This document shows, piece by piece, positions 7,499 to 15,711 of a stretch of 56,797 nucleotides of DNA. The notes beneath the pieces are model-generated. The model was not told the DNA's origin, did no database searches, and was given only the letters and a program-made list of their open reading frames with translations. The translations under genes and the position numbers were made by a program. Each line of letters begins with the position of its first letter. Positions within the stretch are counted from its first letter, which is position 1. The DNA is from Chloroflexi bacterium TSY (lineage in GTDB: Bacteria; Chloroflexota; Anaerolineae; Caldilineales; Caldilineaceae): assembly GCA_019217005.1 (NCBI GenBank), contig JAHBNG010000098.1:1-56797 (forward strand), written 5' to 3'.

Positions 7499-8427
7499 TT
7501 AACGTAATTCCGGCAACACTTCGCTGATAAGCAACTCAAGCGTCGTCAGGTTGGGAAACCCACCGCAGTCGAGCATGAAGTAATCAACCCCCAAATCAAT
7601 GAAGGGGCGCATCTGTTCGATTACTTGTTGCGGAGTCCCAACGAAATCGAAGTCATCAGGGTCGTTGTCAGGGCTGTAGCGCTCTCTGGCAATGGCCTCG
7701 GCTTCCTGATGGGTGGGTGTGCAGATGCAGCCACCGCCCCAAGTTCGCCTTAGTGTCGCTGAATCACGACCAAGGCTTGTGCAAGCACGTTCGACTTCAC
7801 GAACCATATCTCGGTATCTGGCTATCCCCGTAGACGACACATTCCACCAATCTGCGTACTGGGCTGTCAGGCGTAGCATCTTGGGCTTGAAGGCTCGGCT
7901 CCGACCATGATTGGCGGGATGGGTGCGGGCTGTGGCTCACAGTGGGCTTCACGAACCTGATAATGTTGACCCTCGAAGGTCGCTTGCTCCGCAGTCCACA
8001 GTGCCTTGATGACTTGGAGCGCTTCTAAGAGTTGAGTTACTCGAACAGGAGCAGATGGGAAGTCATAGCCATACGCTTCATACTCTTCCTGATGCCACCC
8101 TGCGCCCATTCCGAGGATAAAGCGCCCGCCGCTCAGAAATTGCAACGTCGCGCCCATCTTGGCGACGAGCGCCGGATTGCGAAAGGACTGGCACAGCACA
8201 GTATGGCCAAATTTGAGTTGCGGATGCAGCGCCATCATATAACTCAGGGTAGTAAATCCTTCGAGTACGTCGGCATCATCAAACTGTAGATGATCGATGA
8301 TCCAAGTCGAGTCAAAATGACCACTGATCAGCGTCAACGCCCGATCGAGGTCTTCAATATACGTCGCTCGCTTCACTTTATTCAATTGGTCGGCAGGTAT
8401 GATGAAGCCAAATTGGATTTCGGGCAT
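7499..8427 (-). pseudogene. LLM-class (luciferase-like, F420-type) oxidoreductase with one frameshift
   Basis: The N-terminal frame (8427 to about 7890) contains IQFGFIIPADQ, the barrel segment GGRFILGMGAGWHQEEYEAYG and IPPIMVGAEP. These are typical of F420-dependent LLM oxidoreductases. The C-terminal frame resumes with KPKMLRLTAQYADWWN and ends in FIDLGVDYFMLDCGGFP. The frames join if one T is added to the short run at 7890-7891 (CCTTC for an expected CCTTTC), giving about 310 residues. This could be a sequencing error or a recent mutation. Such enzymes transfer hydride with F420 or FMN in the cytoplasm; the substrate is unknown. Confidence 0.8.
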
Positions 8428-9503: not shown

Positions 9504-10536
9504 TTAACTTAGCGATTTAAGCAGTGCATCTAGCAAAACATCTTGTTCATCAAGCCAGGGTTTTTGCCGAACCAACCGTATCAAATCAATGCTTTGCAAA
9601 TGTTGCACAAAGACCGGGGGTCGCGATTGGTCAAGGGATATAAGAATGATGGGTTTCTTGAGGGCGTAGGCCATCCCAATTTCAAACGAGCAAAAGTGCG
9701 AGGCTAAGGTGGCCTGGGATAGAAGCGCAACAAAACAGCTCTGATTTTGCAAGGCTGCGATGATCGTCCCCTGCCAATCGGTCCCTGGTGGAATTGAGTC
9801 AGCACAGAGAAAAAGATCAGCTTGGAAATAGGTGCGTAGATAATCCATGACGGGCATAATCAGGGCCTCATCCTTGACTGCATGGGAGATAAAAGCCGAT
9901 TTTAACAAAGTCTCAGGAGGGGGCAACGCGGCTGTGGTGATGGCATCTGGATCGGCCAACAGGGTTTGAATATGTTTGAAGGCCTGTAAAGGATCAGTTC
10001 TTGATAGATCGATCACCCGGGCCTGAGAAAATAGCGCAGCCAATAAAGGGGTGGTTCATTTTAGCTGGATAGATAGGTTTACACTTTTAGAAACAGAAAG
10101 AACGTTTATATTCTCTGATTTCGCCGGTTCTCAGAGAGAAAACGGTCTCATATAGATTTTTGTCTATATATCAAAAGTGTAAACCTAATTTTGAACCACC
10201 CCCCAATAAATGGCTAGAACCTCCCAACGAAACCAAGATCCTTTTGTGAGCCTGAATCTGCTGATAAACCTTTATCGGATATTCAAGATCAGTCCCATCA
10301 GCAATCATGACCAGCGTGTTCAGAGCGGGCAAAGGGTCTCCAGGGAGGCAGGTTACGCCCTGGTAGTGTGAGGCTAATTTATGAGCCAAATTCTCAAAAC
10401 GGTATGACGCGCAAAAGCCGATCTCGGCCCAACTGCTGCTATCACTACAGGCCCAATCTTCAGCGATGTGGCTACCGTCACATAGCGGAAATTGTTCAGA
10501 GCGACCACAAACGCACAATTTAAGACGATTTTTCAT
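9504..10536 (-). pseudogene. CDGSH iron-sulfur / TIR fusion protein interrupted by MITE A
   Basis: Two frames (10171-10536 and 9504-10043) are separated by a 155-bp MITE. Removing the element plus one 8-bp duplication joins GGSSHLL to AALFSQARVIDL and gives one frame of 289 residues. Residues 8-23 (CVCGRSEQFPLCDGSH) match the CDGSH signature exactly, with three Cys and one His to bind a 2Fe-2S cluster. A middle alpha/beta region of unknown fold follows (about residues 35-150). The C-terminus is a TIR domain: AFISHAVKDE, then ALLSQATLASHFCSFEIGMA with the likely catalytic Glu, then PIILISLD. TIR domains in bacterial defence proteins often cleave NAD+; coupling to a redox-active cluster is my inference. 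In the present sequence the C-terminal half has no proper start. Confidence 0.85.
10048..10202. mobile_element. MITE family A, complete copy (155 bp)
   Basis: Begins GGGGTGGTTCATTTTAG and ends TAATTTTGAACCACCCC. Its subterminal repeat reads AGGTTTACACTTTT on one side and AAAAGTGTAAACCT on the other. It is flanked by CCAATAAA at 10040-10047 and 10203-10210 (8-bp duplication). It has the same length as the copy at 51751-51905 and matches it in reverse orientation over most of its length. No coding capacity. It splits the CDGSH-TIR gene and adds a short tail and stop to the N-terminal half. Confidence 0.95.
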
Positions 10537-12253: not shown

Positions 12254-14149
12254 TCTCGGAAAGTGTAGTCGGATGTCAGACCAGAGAGGTCGAGGCCGAC
12301 CAATCGCGAGTTGTTAAGAATTTACCCCCAACCCCAAGCTGTTTCCGACGTAGTGATAAGTAGAAAGTGTGGGCTCATTGGAACGACCAAACGGAAACAG
12401 AAAGGGGGGTCGGATGTTAACCAGCATCTTCCGTCACAAGCAGTATGTGCGGTTTGTACGCCATCGAGCGGGTCGATATGGTGCGCTGCGCTGCGACCAT
12501 CGCCATTATGCGGTATGGCGCAAGCTGTCAGCGACGAATCTCGATGGTGCGTACCCGTTTTTGGCACCGTTATACGTGCCAGACTGGGGACGACCCGTGC
12601 GCGACCCGGTGTCCATGTTGCGCTCGTGTCTGGCCATGATGCTCTGTGGTCAGACGAGCTTCGATGTGTGTGGGTGGGGCAGATGCGCGATGAGCCCTTC
12701 TACGCCCTCATCAGCGGCTTCGAGCCCAACGACGTGCCTGGCGTGGGCACGTTTTACGACTTTCAAGACCGTCTCCTGCAACGCGAGCGGCAAGCCCGCA
12801 GCCAGGCTCGTCGCCCCTATCAACGGCGAGATGAGCGGGATCAAGCCGCTGCCCACAAGGACAAGAACGATCTGCGCCCCCATGCGGGCATCGTCAATCG
12901 CCTGACCGCGCTCATTCTGGGGCGCCCTTTTGCGCCGCCAGCCGTCGCTGAACTACTGGCAGGTCAGACTGGTATGGCCGCCTTGCCTACTTGGGAGCAG
13001 GTGCTGCAACGGCTCTTCTACGGCTGCTTCGTGGCCCACTCAGTCGAGTTGGGCTTGCTCGACCTGGACCATCTCCATGTGGCTGGCGACGGCGCCAAAC
13101 TGCCCACTTGGGCCAATCCCTACGGCCAGAAGCTGTGTAAGTGCAATAATCGAGGTAAGAAACGCCACGAACGCTGTCGCTGCCATCGCGCCTACAACGA
13201 CCCCCACGCCCTCTGGGGCTGGGACAGCTACCGTCATTGCTGGGTCTATGGGCACACGGCCTATGAACTGACCGCCTATTCGCTCCAGCATCGCTGCCAA
13301 CTACCCTTGGTCATCACTATGGCTGATGGCAATCGTCATGACAGTCCCCTCGGGCTCGCGACGCTCTATCGGGGGCGAGAAATCTTCGGCTTGCCCATCC
13401 AGACTGCCACTTTGGATGCCGCCCACGATGTCATCGGCTATTATCGCCTTGCCACCCTGCGTTGGGACATGGCGCTGGTCATGCCCCTTAACCAACGCAA
13501 CCAGGACCACAGCCGCTTTGCTGGCTCCATACGCCTAGACGGCAGTATCCCTATCTGTCCCGCCGGGCGGCCCATGACACGCTGGGGCTTCTGTCCCGAC
13601 CGCTTGCGCATCAAGTGGCGCTGTCCCTTGGCCGCCGCCACGAAGACGCCCGACGTGATCACCTGTCCGCACTTTGGCCAGGATTGCTCTGGTTCAGCCT
13701 ATGGGCGCGTCGTCTATACCTATCCCAAGGACAACTATCGCTTGCACACCCGCATCCCCAGGGACAGCGACCTTTGGCAACTTCATGCTAACGCTCGCTC
13801 CTGCGCTGAACGCTCAGTCAAGCGCAAGAAGTACGACTTTCATCTCCTCCAGACCCGCACTGCTGGCCGCGACCGATGGTTCTTCCGCTTCGCTCTCGCG
13901 GCCATGTGTCAGCACGTCGACGCCTGGCTACACCATGCCGCCCGACGACTCGCTTAACACTTGACCCCCTGGGCCACTCACACTTCTCCGCGCTCGGCCA
14001 GGACTACGGATGCCGACCCTTGCCTACTTTTCCCTGCCACTCACACTTTTTTGCCGCTATCCGACATTTTTCTTCCTACTCCCTCCCTTACGCACTTTTT
14101 CGACCCTCCTCGCACCATCGACCTCGGGGATGATGTGCACTTTCCGAGA
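12254..14149 (+). mobile_element. IS1182-like insertion sequence
   Basis: A single transposase gene is flanked by imperfect inverted ends. TCTCGGAAAGTG lies at 12254-12265 and CACTTTCCGAGA at 14138-14149, with weaker similarity extending outwards (CGAACT / AGCTCG). The exact ends and any target duplication could not be fixed. The transposase stop is followed by about 190 non-coding bases before the right end. Confidence 0.7.
12414..13957 (+). pseudogene. IS1182/IS5-type DDE transposase with one frameshift
   Basis: The N-terminal part (MLTSIFRHKQYVRFVRHR onward) is in one frame to about 12660. The rest (VGQMRDEPFYALISGFEP to HHAARRLA) is in a second frame. The frames join if two bases are removed from the GTGTGT run at 12664-12671, giving about 513 residues. 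VAGDGAKLPTW carries the likely first catalytic Asp and ATLDAAHD the second. A Cys/His-rich insert (CKCNNRGKKRHERCRCHR) lies between them. It would cut and join IS ends. The slip sits in a dinucleotide repeat, so real frameshift and sequencing error are both possible. Confidence 0.8.
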
Positions 14150-14309: not shown

Positions 14310-15180
14310 TCAACTGGCGCTGGCTCGTTCAACTACTGAGACGCTGAGCGGGGACTTGAGTTGATTCGTCAAAGTAAGTACCTCCTCAATGCTAATTGCG
14401 TATAGAATACATGTGTCGCCCCGGCGGTTTTTCTCCTGCCCAATCGCTCTTGCGAAGTGGGAATACAGACCGTTGGTATTGGTATCCCCCACTCGCGCGT
14501 GGAAGCGCAGTTGCAACAATCGTGCCCCAACGATCGATATCGTATCCCCCACTCGCGCGTGGAAGCGCACATGTAATATCGAGCCGTGCCTCTGCACCAT
14601 TCGTATCCCCCACTCGCGCGTGGAAGCGCAGTACGCATTCCGGCTGGCATTTTTTAATCTCCTGTATCCCCCACTCGCGCGTGGAAGCGCAGCGTAGCGC
14701 CTGCACCGGCTGATGAGCCAATATGTATCCCCCACTCGCGCGTGGAAGCGCAACGATGGTAAGATAGGCATGTGATGTTTTTCTCGTATCCCCCACTCGC
14801 GCGTGGAAGCGCAGTTCGCGTACACCCGACTTTTGCAATGTCTCCGCCAAAGCACAGACACAATCGCGAAATAAACCTGTATGACGATGGCTCTTAGCAA
14901 TGCCTGCAATGTAGACAAAACCAACTTCCTTGTTGGTGTACTGGTGGGATGGTTCGCCAAGAAAGTAGCCGAGCATGCCGATCATCGTTTCATTTGCGAT
15001 TGGGGAGTCGATATAGACACCGACAACGCCGCCCTTGACAAAAAGAAGCCGGGCAATATCCTGAACAACATCTCGTTTGCTAAAGTGAAACTCCTCTCTC
15101 ATCGACCAGAGGAAATCGACAAGGATTGAATCTTCCGATGGGGCACATACTCGGAAAGTAATCGGTCTTTTGCCTTTCAT
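14310..15180 (-). pseudogene. GNAT N-acetyltransferase interrupted by an internal CRISPR-like array
   Basis: The start at 15180 has a purine-rich GAGAG upstream. The N-terminal 122 residues (MKGKRPITFRVCAPSED to TLQKSGVRE) have GNAT character, with an acyl-CoA region around VGFVYIAGIAKSHRHTGLFRD. The frame then enters the repeats at 14813 and stays open through them to 14392, giving a chimaeric 262-residue product. The native C-terminus (TNTNGLYSHFARAIG, then QEKNRRGDTCILYAIS) lies beyond the array in another frame, ending at 14310. Deleting five repeat-spacer units (304 bp) and keeping one repeat puts both parts in one frame of 188 residues, with the repeat coding LRFHARVGDT. So the repeat appears native to the gene. 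The acetyl acceptor is unknown. Confidence 0.8.
14482..14813. CRISPR. orphan CRISPR-like array: six 28-bp repeats, five spacers, inside a GNAT gene
   Basis: Six identical repeats, each beginning GTATCCCCCACTCG and ending GTGGAAGCGCA, lie at 14482-14509, 14542-14569, 14603-14630, 14664-14691, 14725-14752 and 14786-14813. Spacers are 32, 33, 33, 33 and 33 bases and unrelated to one another. Start-to-start spacing is 60, 61, 61, 61 and 61. A 28-29 bp repeat with a 61-bp unit fits type I-E (or I-F) arrays. The repeat starts GT-CCCC and can form a CCAC/GTGG stem. There is no degenerate terminal repeat, no obvious AT-rich leader and no cas gene in the window. Both flanks are coding sequence of one acetyltransferase gene. 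No spacer matches elsewhere in the window that I could see. Confidence 0.85.
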
Positions 15181-15309: not shown

Positions 15310-15711
15310 TCGCGCGGAATTACTGTGTTTAGCCCGTTGGTCCAGTTGGGCGTCTCGCCGACGGCAAGTGTCGGCCTGATTGGTATCGGTGGCCTTGGTC
15401 ACCTGGCGCTCAATTTTGCGCGCGCTTGGGGCTGCCACGTAACGGCATTTACATCGACCGAGGCAAAGAAACAGAAGGCCCTGGAATTGGGTGCTCATGA
15501 AGTTCTGAACTCACGAGATGCAGAACCTCTTGCAAGTGTATCCGATCGCTTCGACCTATTGCTTTCCACTGTGAACGTTCCTCTAGACTGGAACGCCTAT
15601 ATGGGGACCCTAAAGCGGCGCGGCCGTTTGCACGGCATAGGTGTGGTTCCGGAGCCGATTAGTATTCCAATGATGTCTATATTGGATAGGAAGTATTTGA
15701 GGTCAGAATGA
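15310..15711 (+). pseudogene. zinc-type alcohol dehydrogenase (YahK/CAD-like), internal fragment
   Basis: The frame reads GITVFSPLVQLGVSPTASVG, then the Rossmann motif GIGGLGHLALNFARAWGC, and later STVNVPLDWNAYMGTLKRRG. This is the NAD(P)-binding half of a cinnamyl/aldehyde-reductase type zinc alcohol dehydrogenase. The N-terminal zinc-binding domain (GHE motif, structural zinc cysteines) is missing. The C-terminus breaks off at 15711, where an IS701-like remnant begins. Dead fragment. Confidence 0.85.

What the first reader, a model, noticed from the sequence alone, without database searches (positions are those of the whole stretch)
14310..15180. CRISPR-like array whose repeat is native coding sequence of a GNAT gene: candidate natural neo-CRISPR locus
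Seen: six identical 28-bp repeats and five unique 32-33 bp spacers (unit 61 bp) lie inside one acetyltransferase gene. Deleting exactly five units (304 bp, one base more than a multiple of three) and keeping one repeat joins TLQKSGVRE + LRFHARVGDT + NTNGLYSHFARAIG in one frame of 188 residues, with the repeat coding LRFHARVGDT. Deleting the whole 332-bp array does not restore the frame. So the repeat looks like ancestral gene sequence that was copied with each spacer. Known: Cas1-Cas2 duplicates the repeat at each integration, and off-target integration founding new arrays has been reported experimentally in E. coli. Inference: a type I-E-like integrase working in trans took this gene site as a pseudo-repeat and added five spacers in succession, inactivating the gene.
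Basis: partly seen in the sequence, partly recalled or inferred. Interest (0 to 1): 0.95.

Follow-up and report, generated by a model that had tools for sequence, protein, structure and literature searches.

The report
CRISPR array born inside a gene
In a Chloroflexota bacterium a 28-base stretch of an acetyltransferase gene appears to have been mistaken for a CRISPR repeat and copied with five captured DNA snippets, founding a new CRISPR array and breaking the gene, which shows how new immune-memory loci can arise.

Summary
In detail: six identical 28-bp repeats and five unique 32-33-nt spacers (332 bp) lie inside one GNAT gene. So does the central inference. In 63 of 63 homologues found, the protein runs without a gap through the segment that the repeat encodes. 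Aligned separately to an uninterrupted relative gene (L047), both flanks place the repeat's start at the same base. Replacing the 28 bp by shuffled or window 28-mers never scored as well (0 of 2000 each). So the repeat is native coding sequence, duplicated with each spacer.

The site's + strand resembles cas-linked type I-E repeats of the same order (19/28 at best; 0 of 112,816 other window 28-mers reach that), and the 61-bp unit matches. Best explanation: type I-E Cas1-Cas2, acting in trans, used the gene site as a pseudo-repeat five times: a natural neo-CRISPR locus.

Not shown: the host's cas genes and own repeat (genome not held), spacer targets (none found), transcription, immunity. The pseudo-repeat lacks the full stem. 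Off-target integration is known from E. coli and, as I recall, putatively from two natural genomes; a multi-spacer case with an ancestral coding repeat looks new.

The parts
14392..15180 (-). N-terminal part of the GNAT gene (ATG at 15180; native to 14786), whose frame then runs open through the array to 14392
   Evidence: 49% identity to P0001 over 131 aligned positions; 153 bits to the homologue HMM, match ends in the repeat
14310..14509 (-). repeat plus C-terminal part of the GNAT gene, in another frame relative to the start codon
   Evidence: best domain 60.4 bits to the homologue HMM for the piece searched alone
14482..14509 (+). repeat 1 (predicted leader-proximal by orientation to type I-E repeats of relatives)
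14510..14541 (+). spacer 1, 32 nt, no target found
14542..14569 (+). repeat 2
14570..14602 (+). spacer 2, 33 nt, no target found
14603..14630 (+). repeat 3
14631..14663 (+). spacer 3, 33 nt; the one viral hit of its seed matches only 20 of 33 nt and is taken as chance
14664..14691 (+). repeat 4
14692..14724 (+). spacer 4, 33 nt, no target found
14725..14752 (+). repeat 5
14753..14785 (+). spacer 5, 33 nt, no target found
14786..14813 (+). repeat 6, joined to the N-terminal half of the gene

Best explanation
A natural neo-CRISPR locus. A 28-bp stretch of a chromosomal GNAT acetyltransferase gene resembled, on its antisense strand, the repeat of a type I-E CRISPR-Cas system. Cas1-Cas2 acting in trans integrated a 32-33-nt prespacer there and duplicated the 28 bp, as at a normal repeat. 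The product, repeat-spacer-repeat, was used again until five spacers stood between six identical copies, and the gene was cut in two frames. Shown: the array, the ancestral coding origin of its repeat, a single-copy uninterrupted site in a relative, similarity of the site to cas-linked I-E repeats of the same order, and the same unit length. Inferred: that Cas1-Cas2 did it, that it was type I-E, that it acted in trans in this lineage, and that growth was stepwise. Unknown: whether crRNAs are made.
For: 63 of 63 homologues run ungapped through the repeat-encoded segment and on into the C-terminal part; each of its 10 residues occurs at that column in at least one homologue. The one-repeat join scores 218.1 bits, against 196.7 +/- 3.6 (maximum 211.4) for 2000 shuffles of the block and 197.0 +/- 3.6 (maximum 211.8) for 2000 window 28-mers. 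Empty site: the two flanks, aligned apart to L047, put the repeat's first base at the same locus base; the N-side alignment covers 14 and the C-side alignment 28 of its bases. Site versus six distinct I-E repeats of the order: 14 to 19 of 28 matches; none of 112,816 other window 28-mers reaches 19 against the L010 repeat; none of 112,818 reaches the site's mean over all six. In eleven other loci 1 of 83,686 28-mers reaches the best score and 0 the mean; seven of these loci had been fetched for likeness to the site. 8 of 46 order genomes have type I-E cas1 over cut-off, each with an array of mostly 61-bp unit beside it; L055 has cse1, cse2, cas7, cas5, cas6e, cas1 and cas2.
Against: No cas gene is named among the 32 window ORFs scanned with Pfam, and the genome is not held, so no integrase is shown in this organism. 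No spacer target was found, so the spacers are not proven to be foreign DNA. The 20 nt before the array do not resemble six I-E leaders of relatives (3 to 6 of 20 matches). The base after the repeat is G, C, G, G, A for the five spacers, whereas it is G in 42 of 44 copies of L009-L012. Against the L009 repeat the site is not special (14/28; 420 windows as good; its reverse complement scores 15), and within the same gene another place scores higher against L009 (17) and two others tie against L011. The four GNAT-bearing relative genomes searched have no type I-E cas1 over cut-off (0 of 4).
Confidence: 0.9

Rival explanations
1. An ordinary CRISPR array of this host, with this repeat as its standard repeat, was carried into the GNAT gene by recombination or transposition.
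For: Array architecture is ordinary; a truncated gene lies nearby and an unidentified ORF pair looks transposase-like by eye only; the host's own repeat is unknown.
Against: The repeat encodes the ancestral GNAT segment in frame. No match within 3 mismatches in 400 sampled phylum genomes. In 46 order genomes a looser 21-base pattern gave 7 places in 6 genomes, no genome with more than 2 (control pattern: 3 places), and BLAST of the array gave none. 0 exact in viral contigs. It pairs at 4 of 6 stem positions, where six cas-linked repeats pair at 6 of 6.
Confidence: 0.04
2. Assembly artefact: gene and array were joined in the assembly graph through a shared 28-bp word.
For: Reads are not available, and the window's source is not told.
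Against: It would need a real array elsewhere whose repeat equals, by chance, 28 bp of this gene; both junctions agree with the gene. Most final assembly word sizes exceed 28 (recalled).
Confidence: 0.03
3. A repeat-spacer pattern made by another enzyme (casposase, other integrase or slippage), not by Cas1-Cas2.
For: No cas gene among the 32 window ORFs scanned with Pfam and no spacer target found.
Against: Unique inserts of 32-33 nt between exact 28-bp duplications at a 60-61 bp period match the type I-E ruler of relatives. Other enzymes known to me do not give this (recalled).
Confidence: 0.03

Closest known systems
Off-target (non-canonical) spacer integration by E. coli Cas1-Cas2; Nivala, Shipman and Church 2018, Nat Microbiol 3:310 (paper not held; citing passages seen in PMC11788318, and PMC9456107; rest recalled)
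   Same: Spacer integrated outside the array into the chromosome; as I recall, at sites that resemble the native locus.
   Different: The citing passage speaks of Cas1-Cas2 overexpression. As I recall, putative natural cases were proposed in Yersinia pestis and Sulfolobus islandicus; I could not check how many spacers those hold. Here five spacers stand in a natural gene, with homologues that show the repeat to be ancestral.
Cas-linked type I-E CRISPR arrays of order relatives (L009-L016, L055-L058)
   Same: 28/29-nt repeat, mostly 61-bp unit; the closest, L010/L055, shares GTAT.CCCCAC.CGCG.
   Different: No leader similarity, incomplete stem, no cas gene seen beside it, repeat encodes protein.
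Ectopic spacer acquisition inside existing arrays (Streptococcus thermophilus CRISPR3, PMC7999890; search listing and start of abstract only)
   Same: Spacer inserted away from the usual end.
   Different: There the target is a genuine array repeat; here it is a gene.
Orphan CRISPR arrays without cas genes (for example PMC11687729, passages seen)
   Same: No cas genes seen beside the array.
   Different: That paper reads its orphan as a remnant of a decaying system; here the repeat is gene-derived.

Membership tests
CRISPR array | Near-identical short direct repeats at regular spacing with unique spacers | tested here: met
CRISPR array | Spacers match foreign DNA | tested here: inconclusive
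   No credible targets in IMG/VR by 22-base seeds, in phages or in plasmids
Type I-E array | 28/29-nt repeat and about 61-bp unit | tested here: met
Type I-E array | Repeat with 6-bp palindromic stem | tested here: not met
   4 of 6 pairs against 6 of 6 in six cas-linked repeats
Type I-E array | Adjacent type I-E cas genes | tested here: not met
   No cas family among 32 window ORFs scanned with Pfam; not every ORF of the window was scanned
Type I-E array | Type I-E Cas1-Cas2 in the same genome | not testable with these tools
   Genome not held; 8 of 46 order genomes have cas1 over cut-off
Neo-CRISPR (off-target integration) locus | Repeat is pre-existing host sequence, single copy in relatives | tested here: met
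Neo-CRISPR (off-target integration) locus | Site resembles the native repeat | tested here: met
   Against relatives' repeats only; the host's own repeat is unknown
Neo-CRISPR (off-target integration) locus | Upstream flank resembles the native leader | tested here: not met
   3 to 6 of 20 upstream nt match six relatives' leaders
GNAT acetyltransferase (interrupted gene) | GNAT fold of the family | tested here: met
   Model of homologue P0002, mean pLDDT 88; best PDB matches are GNAT enzymes, E 9.7e-10. Pfam gives no hit to the window pieces; 3 of 58 listed homologues carry PF00583

The most novel reading that the evidence does not exclude
The gene-born array is a working CRISPR locus: it is transcribed, its odd repeat is processed, and its five spacers were kept by selection. 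A protein-coding segment has then become the founder of a new CRISPR repeat lineage, caught soon after birth.
Probability: 0.2. Interest if true: 0.95.

Novelty: new variant of a known kind. Interest (0 to 1): 0.84.

Why it matters
How new CRISPR arrays and repeats arise is an open question. Off-target integration has been seen with overexpressed Cas1-Cas2 (citing passage), but a natural locus with several spacers and a demonstrable pre-integration sequence gives a concrete example. It suggests that a pseudo-repeat with imperfect stem and no recognisable leader can be reused. It yields a test (arrays whose repeat is colinear with homologues of the interrupted gene) for finding more such loci, and it would show that CRISPR adaptation can mutate host genes.

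Tried and rejected
Exact repeat in viral contigs: none. GNAT family in genome contigs: the 18-row alignment had no usable stretch; the 4-row one matched 126 stretches, none a relative; in viral contigs 20 stretches, none a relative. GNAT profile A3: 0 of 4 genomes, 0 of 46 order genomes, 0 of 400 phylum genomes. The larger profile A6: 5 of 396 class genomes, giving 6 places, one of them weak with a stop; in the genus of G742, 1 of 2, the same place. Spacer seeds in viral contigs: 4 of 5 none; spacer 3 hit L046 but only 20 of 33 nt match, and I rejected it. Phage and plasmid BLAST of the array gave four records, all at E of 1 or worse. None of the 5 spacers matches elsewhere in the window with at most 9 mismatches. 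Leader similarity was tested against six of the eight relatives and not found. Promoter-like sites: 1 against 1.3 expected; terminator-like 3 against 1.7. The stem count printed used a wrong pairing offset; one search corrects it. The alignment used a wrong stretch of L047 and is not used; one search replaces it. The alignment runs window array translation past the repeat and is not used beyond it. In one search the motif was not matched in L050 and L051, so four of six places were compared at DNA level.

Full report
Observation. The window holds six exact copies of a 28-bp repeat and five unique spacers of 32-33 nt between 14482 and 14813. None of 100 dinucleotide shuffles gives as many matches. 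The array lies within ORFs 14392-15180 and 14310-14960 of the minus strand. Searched apart, both pieces match the same protein family: the first from near the start to the repeat (153 bits), the second from the repeat toward the C-terminus (60.4 bits). The family has a GNAT fold: the model of homologue P0002 has mean pLDDT 88 and its best PDB matches are GNAT enzymes. Pfam gives no hit to the window pieces.

Is the repeat native? Three searches gave 63 distinct homologues; the third used a profile that already covers the site. In all 63 the protein passes without a gap through the ten residues that the repeat encodes and on into the C-terminal part. Each of the ten residues is seen at its column in at least one homologue; the arginine at the second place is shared by 58 of 63 and the alanine by 61 of 63, whereas the last threonine is shared by one. 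With one repeat kept, the join scores 218.1 bits against the homologue HMM. The same join with the 28-bp block replaced scores 196.7 +/- 3.6 (2000 shuffles, maximum 211.4) and 197.0 +/- 3.6 (2000 window 28-mers, maximum 211.8), and 195.3-204.8 with six I-E repeats of relatives. The N-side flank (70% identity over 294 aligned bases, 14 of them in the repeat) and the C-side flank (62% over 117, 28 of them in the repeat), aligned separately, put the repeat's first base at the same base of L047. That block is 17 of 28 identical to the window repeat and 6 to 11 of 28 like the I-E repeats; three other uninterrupted genes compared give 12 to 18 identical to the window repeat and 4 to 16 like the I-E repeats, the 16 being L049 against the L013 repeat. 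So in some relatives the site is poorly repeat-like and in one it is about as close as the window's to one I-E group; whether the window's lineage drifted toward a repeat before integration cannot be said.

Which integrase? Among eight loci found with the window's PcrA, the four closest (64-73%) are Caldilineaceae and other Chloroflexi MAGs. Of 46 genomes of the order of one of them, 8 have type I-E cas1 over the curated cut-off, each with an array of mostly 61-bp unit beside it. The L055 locus has the set cse1, cse2, cas7, cas5, cas6e, cas1 and cas2. Written from the leader side, its repeat is GTATTCCCCACACGCGTGGGGGTGAACCG; the gene site is GTATCCCCCACTCGCGCGTGGAAGCGCA. They agree at 19 of 28 bases and at 14 of the first 16. 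No other window 28-mer on either strand (112,816) reaches 19. For the other five distinct repeats (L009, L011, L012, L013/14, L015/16) the numbers reaching the site's score are 420, 34, 2, 27 and 5. By the mean over all six, the site beats all 112,818 others; in eleven further loci, seven of them fetched for likeness to the site, 1 of 83,686 28-mers reaches its best score and none its mean. Within the gene itself the site is the best place for four of the six repeats, ties for L011 and is beaten for L009. Orientation follows from the L010, L012, L013 and L015 comparisons: the leader-side end is at 14482, so the array reads antisense to the gene. The base after the repeat varies (G, C, G, G, A), as in the 28-nt-repeat group L013-L016 and unlike L009-L012 with G in 42 of 44 copies, so which of the two I-E groups acted is open.

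A detail that bears on the missing leader: in L055, L056 and L057 an ORF, identified as cas2 in L055, ends one base before the first repeat; in L058 and L013-L016 the gap is 30 to 47 bases. In three of these relatives the bases that would serve as leader are thus coding sequence. That makes use of a site inside a gene less odd for this kind of integrase (inference), although the actual 20 bases before the neo-array match six relatives' leaders at only 3 to 6 places.

Against a transposed ordinary array: no genome of 400 in the phylum sample has the repeat within 3 mismatches. A looser 21-base pattern gave 7 places in 6 of 46 order genomes, with 3 for the reversed control. The whole array finds nothing in those 46 (no positive control) and the exact repeat nothing in viral contigs. 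The repeat forms 4 of 6 canonical stem pairs, against 6 of 6 in six cas-linked repeats.

What stays open. No spacer has a credible target: viral contigs, phages, plasmids, the window. There is no excess of promoter-like sites. The host genome and reads are not available, and the four GNAT-bearing genomes searched have no type I-E cas1 over cut-off. The weak stem suggests poor Cas6e processing, so the array may be a by-product rather than a working memory. On the other hand, five spacers at one site mean that it was used repeatedly. Identical repeats and the absence of stops in either gene half suggest a recent origin (inference).

Relation to the literature. Ten searches of the held library were made. 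In the listings I saw no paper that describes a natural multi-spacer array grown in a coding gene, but the key paper (Nivala et al. 2018) is not held, and from memory it names putative natural off-target events in two organisms. [quoted passage not shown] I therefore call this a new variant of a known kind.

Noticed in passing
window 12311-13957 and 12369-12905 (+): Two overlapping ORFs, transposase-like by eye only, without a Pfam or NCBIfam hit; the longer one also without a PADLOC hit. Perhaps a frameshifted insertion sequence next to the array.
   Followed up: partly
window 15325-15711 (+): Fragment of a zinc-binding alcohol dehydrogenase (ADH_zinc_N is the best match, 128 aa): apparently a truncated gene beside the broken GNAT gene.
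   Followed up: no
window 9504-10043 (-): TIR-domain protein (TIR_2, E 5e-15) with weak Thoeris ThsB-like PADLOC matches.
   Followed up: no
window 7867-8427 (-): Luciferase-like monooxygenase that matches only positions 2-172 of a 314-position profile; apparently truncated.
   Followed up: no
window 14310-15180 (-): Units of 61 bp shift the frame by one, so the repeat reads as LRFHARVGDT, ALPRASGGY or CASTREWGI; both long minus-strand ORFs stay open through all five spacers.
   Followed up: no
L055, L056, L057 (type I-E loci of relatives): The first CRISPR repeat starts one base after the stop codon of an ORF (cas2 in L055), so any leader there must overlap coding sequence; in L058 and L013-L016 the gap is 30-47 bases.
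   Followed up: partly
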